From Cryomorphaceae bacterium (GTDB taxonomy: Bacteria > Bacteroidota > Bacteroidia > Flavobacteriales_D > Crocinitomicaceae): 52,540 nt of DNA. Below the pieces are notes generated by a model. The model made no database searches. It was not told the DNA's origin and saw only the letters and a program-made list of their open reading frames with translations. Shown here piece after piece: positions 2,820 to 21,230 of the stretch. The stretch lies in NCBI GenBank assembly GCA_021299335.1, contig JAJTGF010000013.1:1-52540 (forward strand), read 5' to 3'. Each line of letters opens with the position of its first letter. Position 1 is the stretch's first letter. The position numbers and the translations under genes are program-made.

Positions 2820-5800
2820 ATGAAATACCTATTTTTTGCCTACATTTTTGTTGTCAGTTTTGTGGCTGTTGCCCAAGACACCACTTGGGTTCAGACCTTT
2901 ACGTTTGACTCCATTACTACCCGTAGGGCCAATTTTCAGTTTCCTGCTTCTCTAGACACCGAGCGTTTTGAGAAGGTCCAAATGTTTTATAAACTCAAGT
3001 GTTCTCCACTCACTACCTGGGATCAATACGACTGCGGTGAGTGGGATTACCTCACTTACACGCGCGTTTTTGACCACACAGGCCAATTCGATTCTACCCA
3101 GCTCAATGGCATGCAATTTTTGTCTAATTGGGCAAGTCCGGCACAAATCAATTTCAAGCCACTGCCGTATCAAGAAGCAGATCAGTATCTTATTGAAGAA
3201 TTCAGTAGGCCAGCAGCAGGTCTGCCACATATTTCCTTGAACGCGGGGGGGCTTAGTTCCAATTTACCTTTTGTCACTTCTCAGCAAGGCAGCCGTTTTC
3301 AATTTTTAATCACTGCACAAGAACTTTCAGCAGCAGGAATCCAACCAGGAGCAATTAGTTCATTGCGCTTTAATATACCTGGCGGGGGCATTTTGATGCA
3401 TCCTAAAATATCCTTGGCACATACCCAGCAACAAGCACTTACAGCCTTTATAGAAACAACATTTACCGAAGTTTTCAATGCCTCATTTGCACCCGGCATG
3501 TCCAATGCACCATTACTTCCAGGGTTCAATACATTTGTTTTCTACCAGGATTTTATTTGGAACGGCAATGAAAATATTGCAGTTGAACTCACTCTTGACA
3601 ATGATTTCCCCCTGCCCCAGGACATCATCATGGCAATGGAAACAACAACAGCTCCGCTTGCTGTTGCTTATTCAGGTCGAAATGGAATGCTTGCATTCGA
3701 TGGTTCCAATCATACGATGTCTTCATTCGCTAATGAAGAAATTGGAGGCCAATTCACGATTGAATTTTGGGCCAAAGGAAATGGCAATGCAGGTCAGAAT
3801 ACCACCTTTATGGAGGCTCTCGATACCGCAGGGCGTCGCATTTTCAATATTCACATGCCTTGGAGCAATAACAACATCTATTTTGATGCTGGCGACGAAA
3901 CGGGCTATGACCGCATCAATCAAGCAGCCAGCGCTACAGAGATAGACGCAGAGTGGAACCATTGGGCTTTTGTCAAGGACCAAACAACAGGTCAGATGTT
4001 CATCTATAAAAATGGGCAACTTTGGTTGTCGGGCAATAACAAAAACCGAGAAATGGGTTATTTCCACCGTTTGGTTATTGGTGCTAATGGAAGTAACCAA
4101 AATCTTACTTGGAAAGGTAACTTAGATGAGCTTCGTATTTATAAAACGGCACTCAGCCCAGCTACAATTGCTTTGTATTACCAAAAGAAAATCGATAATA
4201 CCCACCCGAACTGGAATAGCTTAGTGCTTTATCACGATTTTGACAATGTAAAATACGCAAAAGATCTAGGTCCTAACAATCATACCCTGATGCCATCAGC
4301 GCTGGGCATGTTTAAGCCGAATACGAGTTTATTTGTTGGCAGTCAAGGGCTCAATCTACGACCGGTAGTTGAAATTGGTCAAGGTTCGCTATCTGCCAAC
4401 TTCAACACTTTATATATCCCGAAATTGAAACTCAAAGAACCAATTGTTATTTTTGAGCAAGTGCCTTTGCACCGTCATTTTGAGTTGGTTCAGACCTACA
4501 TTGGGGTACCTGAAGGCAGTACCAACACCTATGACTTAAATGGCCAAATGGTGGGCAGTACTCCAATTGTAACAACCCAAACATTTCAAAACCAAGCCAT
4601 CACCGTTTACAACCCACCTTATGAAATCATTCACGATGTCGAAATAGCGCGTTATATTACGCCATACGGCATTCAGTTTGACCTCGGCCCCAACGGCTTT
4701 ACCTGGATTTACGACGTCACTGATTACCAGCAATACTTGCATGGTTTGGTAGACCTCGCCGCCCACAACACCCAAGAACTCATCGACCTCAAATTTGCTT
4801 TCATCAAAGGAATTCCGCCGCGCGATGTCGTGAAGCGCGAACCCATTTGGTCTGAGTTCAAATCGTACAATTTTGGTCAGATGGCCGCCGATGCGGTATT
4901 GCAAGCCAAACCTGTGGTGCTCAGCGACACCGCAGATATGTTCAAAATCAAGACCCGAATGTCTGGCCACGGCCAAGTTGGCGACTATGCATGTTGCGAA
5001 TGGGTCAACAACAGCCATCAAATCAAGGTAGACGGCGTGCCGCGCTTCAATTGGAGCATCTGGGATGCCATGGTCTGTGGAGACAACCCTAATATCAGTC
5101 AGGGTGGAACATGGCCTTATGCCCGCGAAGGTTGGTGCCCTGGCGACATGGTCAAAGAATTTGAATTTGAGCTCACCCCTTATGTGACACCCGGCGACAC
5201 CGTCAGCTTAGATTACGCGATCAATGCGGTGCCTACCACAGACCCTGGCCAAGCCGGCGGAAACTACATCGCTGCCTACGACCTCATCTCTTATTCAGCA
5301 CCGAATTTCCAAAATGATGCCGCTATTGTAGATGTGCTCAACCCGAATAACTACGAATATTACTCCAAATGGAATCCTACTTGCCAGAATCCGCGCATTA
5401 TCATACAAAATACGGGTGCGCAGCCCCTCACATCTTGCCGTATTTTTTGCTGGCTAGATTACGGCTCTAATCTCGTTTTCGACTGGACGGGCAATTTAGG
5501 TTTCCTTGAAAAAGCGGTTGTAGAAATCCCTGTAAGCGACATGAATTGGTGGTACGAGCAAGACAGCTCTTATACTTTTACAGCTTGGGTAGCAGATATC
5601 AATGGCATTATTGGTCCTGATGAATACAATCAGAACAGCCTCAAGACCGTCAAATACGACGCTCCTGAACGCATAGATGGGCCTTTCTTCATTTGGCTCA
5701 CCACCAACAACAAAGCCTCTGAAAATAGCTATCAACTCCTCGATCACGCGGGAACGGTGCTTTTTGAACGCAACAACCTTCAAAATACAACTCAGTACAA

Positions 5801-6281
5801 GGATACCTTCGATTTAGCACCTGGCTGCTATTCCATCATCATCGAAGACACCGACCACGATGGCTTGGCATTTTGGTATTCTTCGCAAGTGGAAGGTGAA
5901 ACTTCTGGGCAAATGCGCTTGCGCCAAGTAGGAGGGAGCTACATCGAGTTTTTCCCTGGCGATTTCGGCCATTACCACCGTTATGATTTCACGGTAGGTT
6001 TCACCTTAGATGTGCCAGAGGTTACGCAGCAACAAGAGATTTCCGTGTTCCCTAATCCTGGTGCTGGAATGGTAACAATAGAAATGGAAGGAGAAATCCA
6101 GGGAGCTGCTCAATTGCGCATCCGCGACCTCACAGGAAGAGAATTATACCGAGAAAAAATGAACGCAACTGCCAACTTTGCTGAAAGTTTCATCGATTTT
6201 AGTGCTTATCCGGCCGGAACCTACCTGATTGAGATTGAAACTGCGAACGGCACCTATGCCCAAAAATTCATTCGCCAATAA
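2820..6281 (+). CDS. Secreted peptide-N-glycosidase F-related protein with internal LamG domain and T9SS C-terminal sorting domain
   Basis: Signal peptide. CGEWDYLTYTRVFD plus ITPYGIQFDLGPNGFTWIYDVTDY plus CCEWVNNSHQIKVDG plus GTWPYAREGWCPGDM match PNGase F segments. LamG at about 3690-4250. C-term SVFPNPGAGMVTIEM...GTYLIEIETANGTYAQKFIRQ. Confidence 0.8.
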   Translation: MKYLFFAYIFVVSFVAVAQDTTWVQTFTFDSITTRRANFQFPASLDTERFEKVQMFYKLKCSPLTTWDQYDCGEWDYLTYTRVFDHTGQFDSTQLNGMQFLSNWASPAQINFKPLPYQEADQYLIEEFSRPAAGLPHISLNAGGLSSNLPFVTSQQGSRFQFLITAQELSAAGIQPGAISSLRFNIPGGGILMHPKISLAHTQQQALTAFIETTFTEVFNASFAPGMSNAPLLPGFNTFVFYQDFIWNGNENIAVELTLDNDFPLPQDIIMAMETTTAPLAVAYSGRNGMLAFDGSNHTMSSFANEEIGGQFTIEFWAKGNGNAGQNTTFMEALDTAGRRIFNIHMPWSNNNIYFDAGDETGYDRINQAASATEIDAEWNHWAFVKDQTTGQMFIYKNGQLWLSGNNKNREMGYFHRLVIGANGSNQNLTWKGNLDELRIYKTALSPATIALYYQKKIDNTHPNWNSLVLYHDFDNVKYAKDLGPNNHTLMPSALGMFKPNTSLFVGSQGLNLRPVVEIGQGSLSANFNTLYIPKLKLKEPIVIFEQVPLHRHFELVQTYIGVPEGSTNTYDLNGQMVGSTPIVTTQTFQNQAITVYNPPYEIIHDVEIARYITPYGIQFDLGPNGFTWIYDVTDYQQYLHGLVDLAAHNTQELIDLKFAFIKGIPPRDVVKREPIWSEFKSYNFGQMAADAVLQAKPVVLSDTADMFKIKTRMSGHGQVGDYACCEWVNNSHQIKVDGVPRFNWSIWDAMVCGDNPNISQGGTWPYAREGWCPGDMVKEFEFELTPYVTPGDTVSLDYAINAVPTTDPGQAGGNYIAAYDLISYSAPNFQNDAAIVDVLNPNNYEYYSKWNPTCQNPRIIIQNTGAQPLTSCRIFCWLDYGSNLVFDWTGNLGFLEKAVVEIPVSDMNWWYEQDSSYTFTAWVADINGIIGPDEYNQNSLKTVKYDAPERIDGPFFIWLTTNNKASENSYQLLDHAGTVLFERNNLQNTTQYKDTFDLAPGCYSIIIEDTDHDGLAFWYSSQVEGETSGQMRLRQVGGSYIEFFPGDFGHYHRYDFTVGFTLDVPEVTQQQEISVFPNPGAGMVTIEMEGEIQGAAQLRIRDLTGRELYREKMNATANFAESFIDFSAYPAGTYLIEIETANGTYAQKFIRQ

Positions 6282-6305: not shown

Positions 6306-8642
6306 ATGAAACAACTCTTCCTTTTACTTTTTACAATCGTTGGCAGTGCTGCCTTTGCTCAATTTTCTATCGATTCGCTTTCGCACATCGATTACCAAGC
6401 ATTGCACGGCGCCAACCTCAATGATGTCTGGGGTTACACCGATGAGCTCGGCAACGAATATGCTATTGTAGGCACATCAAAGGGTACCTCAATTGTAGAT
6501 ATCACCAATGGTAGCCAACCACAAGAAATCTTTTGGTTGGCTGGTTCTGAATCTATCTGGCGCGACCCGTGTGTATTTGGAAACTACGCTTACGTCACCA
6601 CAGAAGCCGAAGACGGTCTGTTGATCATCGACCTCAGCCCGCTCCCACAATCTACGAATCTACCTACCGCGCTTTACACAGGCCCTGCAGCCAATCCATG
6701 GCAAAGTGCGCACACGTGTTATACCTCAGCGAGTGGCTATGCGTATATTTTCGGAGCCAACCGCGGAAACGGGGGCGTAATTATCCTCGACCTCAACGCC
6801 AATCCGATGCAGCCCATCGAAGTTGGTGTCTACGATGCCTCATACGTGCACGACGGTTTTGAGCGAAATGATACGCTTTACACTGGCCATATTTACGAAG
6901 GTTTCTTTTCTATCATTGATGTCTCTGACCACGCCAATCCTGTTCTACTCGCTACGCACCCAACGCCAAATTTATTTACCCACAATATTTGGCCAAGTGC
7001 AGATGGTCAGACGGTCTTTACCACCGATGAAATTTCAGGTGCTTATGTTGCTGCCTACGACATTTCCAATTTACAGCAAATCCAAGAGCAGGACCGCGTG
7101 CAAAATACGCAAGGCACCGCTGTAATTCCGCACAACGTGCACGTCAAAGGAGACTACTTGATCACGAGCTATTACAGCGATGGTGTTGTGGTACACGACG
7201 CGCACGATCCAGAAAACCTCATCAAATTGGGAAGTTTTGATACCTATGTCGGGCAAACCCCAGGCTACGACGGCTGTTGGGGTGTCTTTCCATTTTTTGC
7301 ATCCAATAAAGCGGTTGCAGCAGACATTACCGAAGGGCTTTTTGTCTTGCAAATCAATTATGCTCCGGCCGCAAGTCTCAACGGTGTCGTCAAAGACCTC
7401 ACCACAGGCCAAGTGCTCGAACAAGTTAGCGTCGAACTGATCGGAGCCGCCATGATCGAAAAGACCAATGCACAGGGTACTTACAAAACCGGGATGCCAA
7501 ATAGCGGGACCTACGTTGTAAACGTCAACAAACCTGGGTATTATCCGCAAACAGTTCAGGTCAGTCTGACGCAAGGGCTCACCACGACCTTCAATTTCAA
7601 TTTGTTGCCTATACCGCCTTTTAATTTCCAAATTAAAGTGTTCGAAGAGGGTACCAACCTGACCATTTCCAATGCGCAAATTCGGCTTACTCATCCGCAA
7701 TTGCTGCACGAAGGTCAGACCAATGGCTTGGGTCAAGAAGATTTCACCCTTTTCTACCAAGATTCCTATGATTGTGTGGTGGGCAAATGGGGTTATCAAA
7801 CCACCTGCCTGACGCTTTTCATCAATGCGGCAACCGCAACGGACACTATTTATTTGAAAAAAGGCTTCTACGACGATTTCTCCTTCAACTTTGGTTGGTC
7901 GGTCTTGGGCGATGCCGAAACCGGAATGTGGGAGCGCGCAGAGCCAAACCCTACCACCGGAACCGTTTTCGATTTGGACGCGGCTTTGGATTGCAGTGAC
8001 AAATGTATGGTCACCGGAAATGGCAGCACGCCAAATACCGATCAGAACGATGTCGACAACGGCTTCACCACCCTGATTTCACCAGTTTTTGCACTCACAG
8101 ACTTGACCAATCCTCATTTGAATTATGCGCGTTCTTTTTATTGTTATCATGGCCCAGGGGCCTTCAATGACACCCTGCGCGTGGTACTGAGCAATGGTTT
8201 GGATCAAGTCGTTTTGGAAGAAATTGTAGCACCTCAAGGGCAAGCAATGGCATGGGAATACAAGAGCTTTGCACTTAACGGTCTGCTTCCGTTTACCAAC
8301 TCCATGCAATTATTTGTGCGCACCGCAGATGACCAAGACAATCCAAATATTACCGAGGCTGCTTTTGATCACTTCAGCATCAGTAATGCGCCTATTCTGG
8401 CCGACGATCAACTAGAAAAAGCCCCCATTTTATTGTTTCCGAATCCGGGTCAGGATGAACTGACAATTGGGGCGCTCAATGCGCCAACTACGGTTCAGTT
8501 CTTTCAATTGGATGGCAAGTTGTGTCTAACAGCTGAGCTTGGAACTTCCCCTACTCAAATTGATACCCACGCTTTGCCAAATGGTGCTTACATCATAGAA
8601 ATTGGCGCTGAGCGCCATTCCTGGATCAAATTAGGGCAATAA
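6306..8642 (+). CDS. Choice-of-anchor B family protein (LVIVD-type propeller) with carboxypeptidase-regulatory-like domain and T9SS tail
   Basis: DVWGYTDELGNEYAIVGTSKGTSIVDITNGSQPQEIFWLAGSESIWRDPCVFGNYAYVTTEAEDGLLIIDLS; C-term LFPNPGQDELTIGAL.... Confidence 0.8.
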   Translation: MKQLFLLLFTIVGSAAFAQFSIDSLSHIDYQALHGANLNDVWGYTDELGNEYAIVGTSKGTSIVDITNGSQPQEIFWLAGSESIWRDPCVFGNYAYVTTEAEDGLLIIDLSPLPQSTNLPTALYTGPAANPWQSAHTCYTSASGYAYIFGANRGNGGVIILDLNANPMQPIEVGVYDASYVHDGFERNDTLYTGHIYEGFFSIIDVSDHANPVLLATHPTPNLFTHNIWPSADGQTVFTTDEISGAYVAAYDISNLQQIQEQDRVQNTQGTAVIPHNVHVKGDYLITSYYSDGVVVHDAHDPENLIKLGSFDTYVGQTPGYDGCWGVFPFFASNKAVAADITEGLFVLQINYAPAASLNGVVKDLTTGQVLEQVSVELIGAAMIEKTNAQGTYKTGMPNSGTYVVNVNKPGYYPQTVQVSLTQGLTTTFNFNLLPIPPFNFQIKVFEEGTNLTISNAQIRLTHPQLLHEGQTNGLGQEDFTLFYQDSYDCVVGKWGYQTTCLTLFINAATATDTIYLKKGFYDDFSFNFGWSVLGDAETGMWERAEPNPTTGTVFDLDAALDCSDKCMVTGNGSTPNTDQNDVDNGFTTLISPVFALTDLTNPHLNYARSFYCYHGPGAFNDTLRVVLSNGLDQVVLEEIVAPQGQAMAWEYKSFALNGLLPFTNSMQLFVRTADDQDNPNITEAAFDHFSISNAPILADDQLEKAPILLFPNPGQDELTIGALNAPTTVQFFQLDGKLCLTAELGTSPTQIDTHALPNGAYIIEIGAERHSWIKLGQ

Positions 8643-18116: not shown

Positions 18117-21100
18117 TTATTGCTTGATAAATTGCAATAAGCCGCTTTGTCCTTCTTCGTAGATTCCTAAATAATAGCTTCCGGCAGCAATTTTAGGGCT
18201 CAGTTCGATGGTTTGCTTCACTTTACCGTTGGAGGCTTTCAAAGCAAAACTCGCAATGTGTTGGCCCTTTAAATTGAAAAGTTTGGCTTCTAATCCAGCG
18301 CTCTTAATGCCTTCAATTTGGAGTTCAAAAATGCCGTTATTCGGATTTGGATACAGCTGCATCACTTGAAAGTTCAATTCGGATAGGCTAGAGCTATTGA
18401 CCACCACCTCAATGGCCGTAACGCAGCCATTGTTGTCTTTTACATAACAAGTGTAAGTACCTATAGCCAAACCAGAGAAGAAAGAACCGGAATAGTAATT
18501 CTGACCATCCATGGAATAGGTGTAAGGCGAGTTCCCGCCGCTTGCAGCGAGTGCAATGGTGCCGTCGTTTCCGTTAGAAACTGTTGTATTTGCAGTTAGC
18601 ATAAGTGCAGCGGGCTCGGTAATTGTACTGGTGAAGTCTTGCTGACACCCGTTGGCATCGGTAGCCGTTAGTGTGTAGGTTCCTGCTGGCAAACTTGAAA
18701 ATACAGGACTCGTAGATGCAGCACCACCATTGAGGGCATAGGTGTACGGGCTCGTTCCTCCGCTCACTTGGCAATTGAGCGAACCGTCGTTGGCACCATT
18801 GCAACTGATCATTGTCGGAATCATGTTAACGCTCAGTGGGGTAGGCTCAGTTACGATATAGGTGAGGGATGTGCTGCAGCCATTGGCATCGATGACTCCG
18901 ATGGTGTAGGTGCCAGCACCCAAATTATTAAAGGTGTTGCTCGCTTGATCAGCACCATTGTTGATAGAGAAATTGTAGGGTGCTGTTCCACCATTTGGCG
19001 TCACGACAATATTCGCGGTTTGTGAGCCTGCACAAGCAATCGTGGTAGTCTGGACAACGCTCGCATTGATCGAGGCTGTGGCGGCAATTGTAAATGTTCC
19101 GGAGACAGCACATCCTTGGTTATCTGTAACAGTATAGGTGTAGTTGCCTGCGCTGAGGTTGTTGAAGGTATTCGAAGTTTGAGCAGGAGCGTTATCGAGG
19201 GCATAGGTGTAAGGACTGTTATTGCCTGTCGCTTGTAACACAACCACACCATTGCTGGCATTGCAACTTGGTTGCTGACTCACAACGGCATTGACGGTTA
19301 CATTAGATGCGCCAATGACATTGATGTTCAGGTTAAATTGATCATTACAGGTATTTTCGTCGTTACCCAAGCCATTGATATTGGCCAGCTGCAAAAGAAC
19401 GTTGTTTGAACCAGCCTGGAGCCCAGAAACAGTAAAGAAAATGGTATCGATGGCTTGATACCCACCAAGACTGGAGCTCGTAAAGGCCTGACTCGTTGGA
19501 TTAGCTGTTCCTATTTGACTAGAAACGGTAAACGTATTGACAGCGTTAACGCCGCGGTTTTCAACGATGATCGCAATTTGAGTGCTGGCTCCGCAAATAC
19601 CGCCTGTTTGGGTGGTGTAGGCATCAAGAATAGCTAAGTCTAGGCTATCAGGATTCATTTTAAAGGCAGATACATTGGTGACGATATTGTTGTTGGAATT
19701 CATGACCACGCCGGTGTAATAGAAGGTAAGACCGTCGAAATCGTCGATGCACATATGGTGGTAATCACCCCAGCGCGTGTTGGAAGTACGTGCAGACAAG
19801 CCCTGCTTGATCATGGTTTCGGGTAGCGTCATTTGCCCAAGTGGATCACAAGCTTTGCGGCCAGTCATTTGGATGGAGGGGTAGTCTGGCGCGGTGCTGC
19901 CCGAAGTGGAATAGGCCAACATGATATTTCCGTACTTATCAATATTAATGGCGGGCATCCAGCGATTGAGCGTGGTTCCTGGCGCATAGGTTCCTTCTTG
20001 ATAGAGTGTCCAGGCACCAGTGCTGCCTGTTGGTCTGCGCAATTCTAGCCAACGTACACCCGCTCGGTTGTTACCGTTGACATCTGTTGCCAAGCAAAGC
20101 GCCATCGCTTGATGGTCTTGGAATACACGCATAGGTGCTTTGTACATAACGCATTCTCTGAGCGGATCTAGTTTCACGGTGGTGCCTGGCTGTGCAATAC
20201 AAGAAAAACTGGTGAGGCCACAGAGGTCGGAGTCAATTTCGGTAATTGGCACATCTTGAATTTTGGCAACGCTACCGGTGTTGTTGGTCCAGTTGATGGT
20301 CATTTCCCAAATTTCGATCCAGTCGTTGGTAGGGCTATCCGGAGATCCGTTGCTGTGCTTTTCGTCGTCGCGGTGGCGCACAAATAGTGGTTTTTGACCA
20401 GCGGGTCCGGCGAGGTCTCCTTCTAGATCTACGGGTGTTATGGATTGAAAACCAAAGCCATTGAGCGTATAGCCGATGGCCACGCCTATAAATGGAGAAG
20501 TGGCACCACTGACTAGTGCGCTGAGTTTCATCGCATAAACGCGCGGAGGCCCACCTTCATTGGTGGAGGCCAACAAAGCATCTGAGGTTTCGCATATGCT
20601 CCATTTTGGATAATCAGGGAAATTTGGACAAGTAAATTGATAAAAATAATAGGCACCTTGGGGATTGCTCGTTTGGGATACGTATACGAGAAGCTTCTTT
20701 TGAGCTTGTGTGGAAAATTGGGTGATGATCCAGCGTTTGGCTGTTTTGTAATAAAGGATCACGGGGTCTCCAAGACCGGTAACCGTTGGACTCCCAAGGG
20801 TGGCCATCACTAAAGTACCGCTGACGCTTGCCCCGGTTGTTTTGTTAAAAATTTTGTAAGAGCCGCCGCTTCCAGAATTGGTTCCCTGAATGTAAACCGT
20901 TGAATCTGACTCTCCTGAAGGGTCTGGCGGCGAAATTCCATTGCCAATACCCTGTACTTGCCATAACAAACTGGCAGAGGTTGTTTTTTGTTGATTATTG
21001 TTGCCATGCTGTTGCCAAACCCAATCGGGCTGGTGTGCATTGAAACCCATTTGAACGGGAACCTCGCGTCCTTTGAAATTGGGAATCACGATGTCTTTTT

Positions 21101-21230
21101 TGGGATCTGCTTGGTTAGGAGCTGCAACCAATTGTGCTGTGGTTGGCGTTACATAGCCGTAAAATTCGGCGTTTTGAGCAAAAATAGAGCTGCAGCAACA
21201 GAGCAGGACGGAGAGTAAGCGTAGTTTCAT
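18117..21230 (-). CDS. Secreted T9SS-sorted protein with SprB repeats
   Basis: Signal peptide, repeated GG(T/N)SPYTYALNGG...F..L.AGTYT.T..DANGC units, C-term LYPNPNNGIFELQIEGIK...GSYYLGIYEEGQSGLLQFIKQ. Confidence 0.85.
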   Translation of the reverse strand: MKLRLLSVLLCCCSSIFAQNAEFYGYVTPTTAQLVAAPNQADPKKDIVIPNFKGREVPVQMGFNAHQPDWVWQQHGNNNQQKTTSASLLWQVQGIGNGISPPDPSGESDSTVYIQGTNSGSGGSYKIFNKTTGASVSGTLVMATLGSPTVTGLGDPVILYYKTAKRWIITQFSTQAQKKLLVYVSQTSNPQGAYYFYQFTCPNFPDYPKWSICETSDALLASTNEGGPPRVYAMKLSALVSGATSPFIGVAIGYTLNGFGFQSITPVDLEGDLAGPAGQKPLFVRHRDDEKHSNGSPDSPTNDWIEIWEMTINWTNNTGSVAKIQDVPITEIDSDLCGLTSFSCIAQPGTTVKLDPLRECVMYKAPMRVFQDHQAMALCLATDVNGNNRAGVRWLELRRPTGSTGAWTLYQEGTYAPGTTLNRWMPAINIDKYGNIMLAYSTSGSTAPDYPSIQMTGRKACDPLGQMTLPETMIKQGLSARTSNTRWGDYHHMCIDDFDGLTFYYTGVVMNSNNNIVTNVSAFKMNPDSLDLAILDAYTTQTGGICGASTQIAIIVENRGVNAVNTFTVSSQIGTANPTSQAFTSSSLGGYQAIDTIFFTVSGLQAGSNNVLLQLANINGLGNDENTCNDQFNLNINVIGASNVTVNAVVSQQPSCNASNGVVVLQATGNNSPYTYALDNAPAQTSNTFNNLSAGNYTYTVTDNQGCAVSGTFTIAATASINASVVQTTTIACAGSQTANIVVTPNGGTAPYNFSINNGADQASNTFNNLGAGTYTIGVIDANGCSTSLTYIVTEPTPLSVNMIPTMISCNGANDGSLNCQVSGGTSPYTYALNGGAASTSPVFSSLPAGTYTLTATDANGCQQDFTSTITEPAALMLTANTTVSNGNDGTIALAASGGNSPYTYSMDGQNYYSGSFFSGLAIGTYTCYVKDNNGCVTAIEVVVNSSSLSELNFQVMQLYPNPNNGIFELQIEGIKSAGLEAKLFNLKGQHIASFALKASNGKVKQTIELSPKIAAGSYYLGIYEEGQSGLLQFIKQ
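18400..19290 (-). repeat. About four tandem SprB-type protein repeats
   Basis: Four SPYTYALD / APYNFSIN / SPYTYALN / SPYTYSMD units, each followed by AGTY/IGTY and a D.(Q/A/N)GC motif. Confidence 0.8.

What the first reader, a model, noticed from the sequence alone, without database searches (positions are those of the whole stretch)
2820..6281. PNGase F-like enzyme split by a LamG domain and exported by T9SS
Segments matching PNGase F (remembered Elizabethkingia sequence) occur in order. CGEWDYLTYTRVF aligns with CDEWDRYANVYV, which holds the catalytic Asp. ITPYG...YDVTDY aligns with ITPYW...DVTDF. CCEWVNNSHQIKVDG aligns with CAEWCFRTHTIAIN, which holds a catalytic Glu. GTWPYAREGWCPGD aligns with NWAPDRAGWCPGM. 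A LamG/concanavalin-like module (about 3690-4250) separates the first segment from the rest. The active-site Glu expected in the YTETW region is not obvious (DLKFAFIKG). This may be a deglycosylase with an added carbohydrate-binding module, or a non-catalytic glycan binder.
Basis: partly seen in the sequence, partly recalled or inferred. Interest (0 to 1): 0.6.

Follow-up and report, generated by a model that had tools for sequence, protein, structure and literature searches.

The report
Deglycosylating enzyme with inserted lectin-like domain
A secreted bacterial enzyme of the PNGase F family, which cuts sugar chains off proteins, carries a lectin-like LamG domain spliced into the middle of its catalytic fold; this layout seems to have arisen once and is widespread among Bacteroidota, but its activity and substrate are untested.

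Summary
ORF 2820-6281 (1153 aa) is a PNGase F-superfamily protein: N-glycanase_C is over its cut-off, the nearest solved structure by sequence is PNGase F, and the predicted fold matches it. About 500 residues, including a LamG domain, split the first jelly roll. With the insert left out, profile alignment puts Asp76 on Asp60 and Glu727 on Glu206. Both are invariant in 66 homologs of the same architecture, as are His717, Arg769 and Trp772. The missing 'YTETW Glu' is real: the Glu118/Trp120 loop is deleted in this clade, with an invariant Glu653 beside the gap. Active PNGases without that Glu are known.

LamG is in 20/20 long forms and 0/16 insert-free relatives; on the tree the long form is one clade next to insert-free forms, so one acquisition is the simplest reading. 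T9SS-tailed, multi-module, active PNGases are already published; I found no paper on the LamG-insert form. Phylum-wide, compact PNGases co-occur with GH92 mannosidases (24/26 genomes) and long forms do not (4/21), so the substrate may differ. Verdict: new variant of a known family, probably active, substrate open.

The parts
2820..6281 (+). ORF, 1153 aa, PNGase F-superfamily protein with LamG insert and T9SS tail
   Evidence: all 79 homologous ORFs extracted from named genome records are open over at least 1098 codons
2820..2876 (+). N-terminal signal peptide (residues 1-19, MKYLFFAYIFVVSFVAVAQ)
   Evidence: sequence; hydrophobic stretch read by eye, no signal-peptide program run; modelled as a helix
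2877..3095 (+). first part of jelly roll 1 (residues 20-92)
   Evidence: profile alignment to PNGase F and short relatives
3033..3050 (+). CGEWDY motif: Cys72, Trp75 (=Trp59), catalytic Asp76 (=Asp60), Tyr77 (=Arg61)
   Evidence: invariant in 66 homologs; aligned to PNGase F
3096..4604 (+). insert of about 500 residues (93-595) within jelly roll 1
   Evidence: gap between motifs 541 residues here, about 130 in mid forms, about 20-30 in short forms; exact ends uncertain by some residues
3096..3719 (+). insert module A (residues 93-300): beta-sandwich about 145-285, no Pfam family
   Evidence: AlphaFold2 pLDDT 84, pTM 0.79; no significant PDB fold match
3741..4172 (+). LamG / concanavalin A-like domain (residues 308-451)
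   Evidence: PF13385 E 2e-17; in 20/20 long homologs
4605..4889 (+). rest of jelly roll 1 (residues 596-690), includes EIARYITPYG and DVTDY
4764..4787 (+). shortened Glu118/Trp120 loop, HNTQELID (residues 649-656), invariant Glu653
4890..5309 (+). jelly roll 2 (residues 691-830); PF09113 match at 4914-5255
4968..5000 (+). His717 (=Trp191) to catalytic Glu727 (=Glu206)
5109..5144 (+). TWPYAREGWCPG (residues 764-775): Arg769 (=Arg248), Trp772 (=Trp251), Cys773 (=Cys252)
5310..6005 (+). two C-terminal beta modules (residues about 831-960 and 961-1062), Ig-like and galactose-binding-like
   Evidence: secondary structure of the model; PF23623 only weakly, below cut-off; the Ig-like label is inference
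6045..6272 (+). type A T9SS C-terminal sorting domain (residues 1076-1151)
   Evidence: PF18962 E 6e-15; TIGR04183 E 3e-15; T9SS translocon SprA_N in the same genome

Best explanation
The gene encodes a T9SS-exported peptide:N-glycanase-type amidase. Two jelly rolls form the catalytic body; Asp76 and Glu727 sit at the positions of the catalytic pair Asp60/Glu206 of PNGase F and, by analogy, hydrolyse the glycosylamide bond between an N-linked glycan and asparagine. A block holding a beta-sandwich and a LamG lectin-like domain was inserted, apparently once, into the hairpin after the catalytic Asp, probably in an ancestor that had already lost the Glu118/Trp120 loop. I infer that the insert holds or orients the glycoprotein substrate, taking over part of the lost glycan platform. 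Shown by computation: the fold match, conserved catalytic positions, insert, loop deletion, one clade, T9SS tail. Inferred: activity, substrate, LamG role, cell-surface location.
For: PF09113 over cut-off; PNGase F top sequence match; Foldseek match to 1pgs E 2e-8, TM 0.54 of the target; insert-less profile aligns over 250 columns at 29% identity with Asp76 on Asp60; Asp76, Glu727, Trp75, His717, Arg769, Trp772 and Cys61/72/753/773 invariant in 66 homologs; the catalytic-fold parts are the most conserved. The consensus His+Glu loop and an open space near C3 of the core GlcNAc occur in PNGases shown to be active (PMC12381499); Glu118 is Asp or Gly in active enzymes (PMC9522356); alanine mutants of both catalytic residues in zebrafish Ngly2 lose activity (PMC12753239). 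The genome has two GH92 and one GH20 and no GH18 match, and the SprA_N T9SS family.
Against: No activity data. The Trp/Tyr platform for the second GlcNAc is lost. The long form does not co-occur with GH92 phylum-wide (4/21 against 136/375, P 0.16) nor inside its own family (51/58 against 6/8, P 0.30), and its neighbours are housekeeping genes. Active-site loops at 617-619 and 759-775 have low confidence. The fold match covers 245 columns and does not show whether the Asp strand lies in it.
Confidence: 0.65

Rival explanations
1. A PNGase-fold amidase with changed specificity: the glycan-platform loop was deleted and the LamG block now selects a different substrate, such as another amide-linked glycan or a whole glycoprotein or mucilage polymer.
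For: Clade-specific deletion of the Glu118/Trp120 loop with invariant Glu653, whereas most other relatives shown keep Trp or Tyr there; no phylum-wide link with GH92 for the long form, unlike compact PNGases (24/26, P 6e-10); LamG is retained in every long form scanned.
Against: All other contact residues are conserved; loop-altered PNGases still cut N-glycans (PMC12381499, PMC9522356); in the window's order the two families do co-occur (134/157 against 22/42, P 2e-5), though this is uncorrected for relatedness and genome completeness.
Confidence: 0.2
2. A non-catalytic glycan-binding adhesin built on a PNGase fold.
For: Several lectin-like or beta-sandwich modules and a T9SS tail; loss of the glycan platform.
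Against: Asp76 and Glu727 invariant in 66 homologs with 33-83% identity to the window protein; over 20 diverse long forms Asp is 20/20 and Glu 19/20 with one alignment gap; catalytic-fold parts more conserved than the LamG.
Confidence: 0.1
3. The motif similarity is chance or an assembly artefact.
For: Single-sequence similarity of the Asp segment alone is not significant (1.3 bits).
Against: 79 open homologous ORFs in independent genome records; profile E-values.
Confidence: 0.01

Closest known systems
PNGase F, Elizabethkingia meningoseptica (1PGS, 1PNF)
   Same: double jelly roll; Asp60, Glu206, Trp59, Arg248, Trp251 and the 51-56 and 231-252 cysteines have counterparts
   Different: no insert; has the Glu118/Trp120 loop and Trp191, where this clade has a deletion and His; the solved chain has no T9SS tail
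PNGaseL (Flavobacterium akiainvivens) and PNGaseDo (Draconibacterium orientale), PMC12381499
   Same: T9SS tails, extra beta modules, active, His+Glu loop
   Different: modules described N- or C-terminal to the catalytic domain; no LamG insert inside the jelly roll described
PNGase F-II and Bacteroides group 2 PNGases, PMC9522356
   Same: Glu118 replaced, still active
   Different: Gly plus compensating Glu, N-terminal bowl domain, no LamG insert described
Zebrafish Ngly2 acid PNGase, PMC12753239
   Same: catalytic Asp and Glu shown essential by mutation; accessory domain lies next to the active site
   Different: accessory domains N-terminal; acidic pH optimum; no LamG
Insert-free Bacteroidota relatives (L026, L054-L056 and others)
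   Same: same catalytic motifs, mostly T9SS-tailed; L026 and L056 share the loop deletion
   Different: no LamG; about 130 residues between the two motifs, against 541

Membership tests
PNGase F superfamily | N-glycanase_C domain above curated cut-off | tested here: met
   45.1 bits against 25; matched in 20/20 homologs
PNGase F superfamily | N-glycanase_N domain | tested here: inconclusive
   no PF09112 match; the model's region is interrupted by the insert. With the insert left out the profile aligns across it; 6/16 insert-free relatives match PF09112 weakly
PNGase F superfamily | double jelly-roll fold | tested here: met
   Foldseek to 1pgs E 2e-8, TM 0.54 of target, 245 columns; packing of the N-terminal strands not examined, coordinates not available
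PNGase F superfamily | catalytic Asp60 and Glu206 | tested here: met
   Asp76 and Glu727, invariant in 66
PNGase F superfamily | peptide:N-glycanase activity | not testable with these tools
   needs an assay
PNGase F type I subgroup | Glu or Asp at position 118 | tested here: not met
   loop deleted; therefore not filed as type I
T9SS cargo | type A C-terminal sorting domain | tested here: met
T9SS cargo | T9SS machinery in the genome | tested here: met
   SprA_N, E 1e-133
LamG domain family | Laminin_G_3 above cut-off, lectin-like fold | tested here: met
   64 bits against 27.6; fold neighbours pentraxins and PAPP-A
LamG domain family | carbohydrate binding | not testable with these tools
   needs a binding assay

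The most novel reading that the evidence does not exclude
The LamG-insert clade is a functionally distinct branch of the PNGase F superfamily: an ancestor lost the Glu118/Trp120 glycan platform, then a lectin-like block was inserted beside the catalytic Asp and re-targeted the enzyme to a substrate other than the chitobiose-core N-glycans that compact PNGases and GH92 enzymes process.
Probability: 0.2. Interest if true: 0.6.

Novelty: new variant of a known kind. Interest (0 to 1): 0.42.

Why it matters
PNGases are standard tools for removing N-glycans, and recent work looks for new specificities among environmental enzymes. This clade is widespread in Bacteroidota (PF09113 in any form: 157 of 199 genomes of the window's order), has a predicted active site altered at one defined loop, and carries a domain inside the catalytic fold rather than at its ends. 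It offers a direct test of whether an inserted lectin-like module can replace a lost substrate-binding loop.

Tried and rejected
PF09112 search of the own genome found nothing, but the control genomes were empty too. GH92 as a functional partner: no phylum-wide link for the long form, a link inside the order that is not seen inside the family; not used as support. Adjacency to the LVIVD-repeat gene was rejected as a functional clue: both sit in a housekeeping block conserved among close relatives. Insert module A gave no significant PDB sequence or fold match. Literature searches found no description of a LamG-insert PNGase; only open-licence PMC papers were searched. Measuring the Asp76-Glu727 distance was not possible: the model's coordinates are not exposed.

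Full report
The ORF. Window 2820-6281 (+) encodes 1153 aa in one open frame. Pfam finds LamG at 308-451, N-glycanase_C at 699-812 and a T9SS type A tail at 1076-1151. phmmer against the PDB gives PNGase F at E 4e-11, and a 66-sequence profile gives E 2e-23 and also a 687-residue zebrafish chain at E 2e-5 (labelled Si:dkey-256h2.1; equating it with Ngly2 is my reading).

Host and spread. By its homologs the window is from Crocinitomicaceae (record titles of metagenome assemblies are often unreliable). N-glycanase_C is in 61 of 396 sampled Bacteroidota genomes and 157 of 199 of the window's order. In the window's own family I count 58 of 66 from the rows. These counts are for PF09113 in any form. 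All 79 homologous ORFs taken from named records are open over at least 1098 codons, some ending at contig edges.

Architecture. Between the Asp motif and the ITPY motif PNGase F has about 20 residues, mid-size relatives about 130, and this protein 541. LamG is in 20 of 20 long forms and 0 of 16 insert-free relatives; the T9SS tail is in 15 of 20 and 14 of 16. On a maximum-likelihood tree of the catalytic C-terminal region, 33 long forms are one side of a branch (SH-aLRT 97) and four mid forms (L026, L054, L055, L056) are next to them. This was the quick method without bootstrap, and some short rows have long branches. One gain is the simplest reading.

Fold. AlphaFold2 on A2 gives mean pLDDT 85, pTM 0.53. 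Foldseek matches 1pgs with E 2e-8 and TM 0.54 of the target; the LamG finds PAPP-A and pentraxins (which part of the query each hit covers is not printed, so this assignment is by hit identity). I left the insert columns out of the alignment and compared the profile with PNGase F: probability 99.8%, 250 columns, 29% identity, Asp76 on Asp60. PNGase F residues 63-75 were set to X, because I had only the letters of 27-62 and 76-291.

Active site. Asp76, Glu727, Trp75, Tyr77, His717, Arg769, Trp772 and the cysteines 61, 72, 753 and 773 are the same in all 66 rows of A2. In the more diverse A1, Asp76 and His717 are 20/20 and Glu727 is 19/20 with one alignment gap. His plus Glu is the usual pair in PNGases, and PNGase F with Trp191 is the exception (PMC12381499). 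The loop that carries Glu118 and Trp120 in PNGase F is deleted in the long forms, and an invariant Glu653 follows the gap. L026 and L056, without LamG, share the deletion; L054 and L055 keep a longer loop with Trp. Most other relatives shown keep Trp or Tyr; two (L068, L071) have neither in the aligned place. Glu118 is Asp or Gly in active enzymes (PMC9522356), so its loss alone does not argue for inactivity.

Conservation by module in A1, as mean frequency of the commonest residue: jelly-roll parts 0.67, 0.66 and 0.56, LamG 0.51, module A 0.37. This fits an enzyme whose catalytic body is under the strongest constraint.

Genome context. Upstream are fructose-bisphosphate aldolase and a carboxyl-transferase-domain gene (accD-like, my reading), downstream an LVIVD-repeat T9SS protein and a glycosyltransferase; the block is conserved among close relatives only. 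The genome (82% complete) has two GH92, one GH20, no GH18 match, and SprA. None of the three glycosidase genes is on the window's contig.

Co-occurrence. Phylum-wide, GH92 is in 24 of 26 genomes with only compact PNGases, 4 of 21 with long forms and 0 of 14 with mid forms. I assigned the three classes by hand from open-frame length and BLAST. In the order, GH92 goes with PF09113 of any form (134/157 against 22/42), but in the family it does not (51/58 against 6/8, counts made by hand). None of these tests corrects for relatedness. I read them as showing that the long form can exist without GH92 processing, not as showing a different substrate.

Literature. T9SS-tailed, multi-module PNGases are known and active (PMC12381499). 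I found no description of the LamG-insert form in the open-access library.

Verdict. A real and widespread new variant of a known enzyme family; activity and substrate untested.

Noticed in passing
L125: The record titled Glaciecola amylolytica (CP034120) carries a 50% identical homolog whose flanking genes are 58-80% identical to those of Fluviicola locus L123 and of L124; the record is probably a mislabelled Crocinitomicaceae genome.
   Followed up: partly
6306-8642 (+): Neighbouring LVIVD-repeat protein with a carboxypeptidase-regulatory-like domain and a T9SS tail, next to the PNGase gene in close relatives.
   Followed up: partly
18117-21230 (-): Large protein with SprB repeats and a T9SS tail.
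   Followed up: no
L155, L156, L157: Own genome holds two GH92, one GH20, an S8 and an S9 peptidase on three separate contigs.
   Followed up: partly
L073, L086, L098, L099, L109: Several metagenome-assembly titles (Chryseobacterium gleum, Polynucleobacter, Chitinophaga pinensis) do not fit the close match to Crocinitomicaceae proteins.
   Followed up: no
genomes G017, G128, G136 (loci L024, L039, L064; L038, L059; L045, L046): Some genomes hold two or three PNGase F-family genes, in part of different size classes.
   Followed up: no
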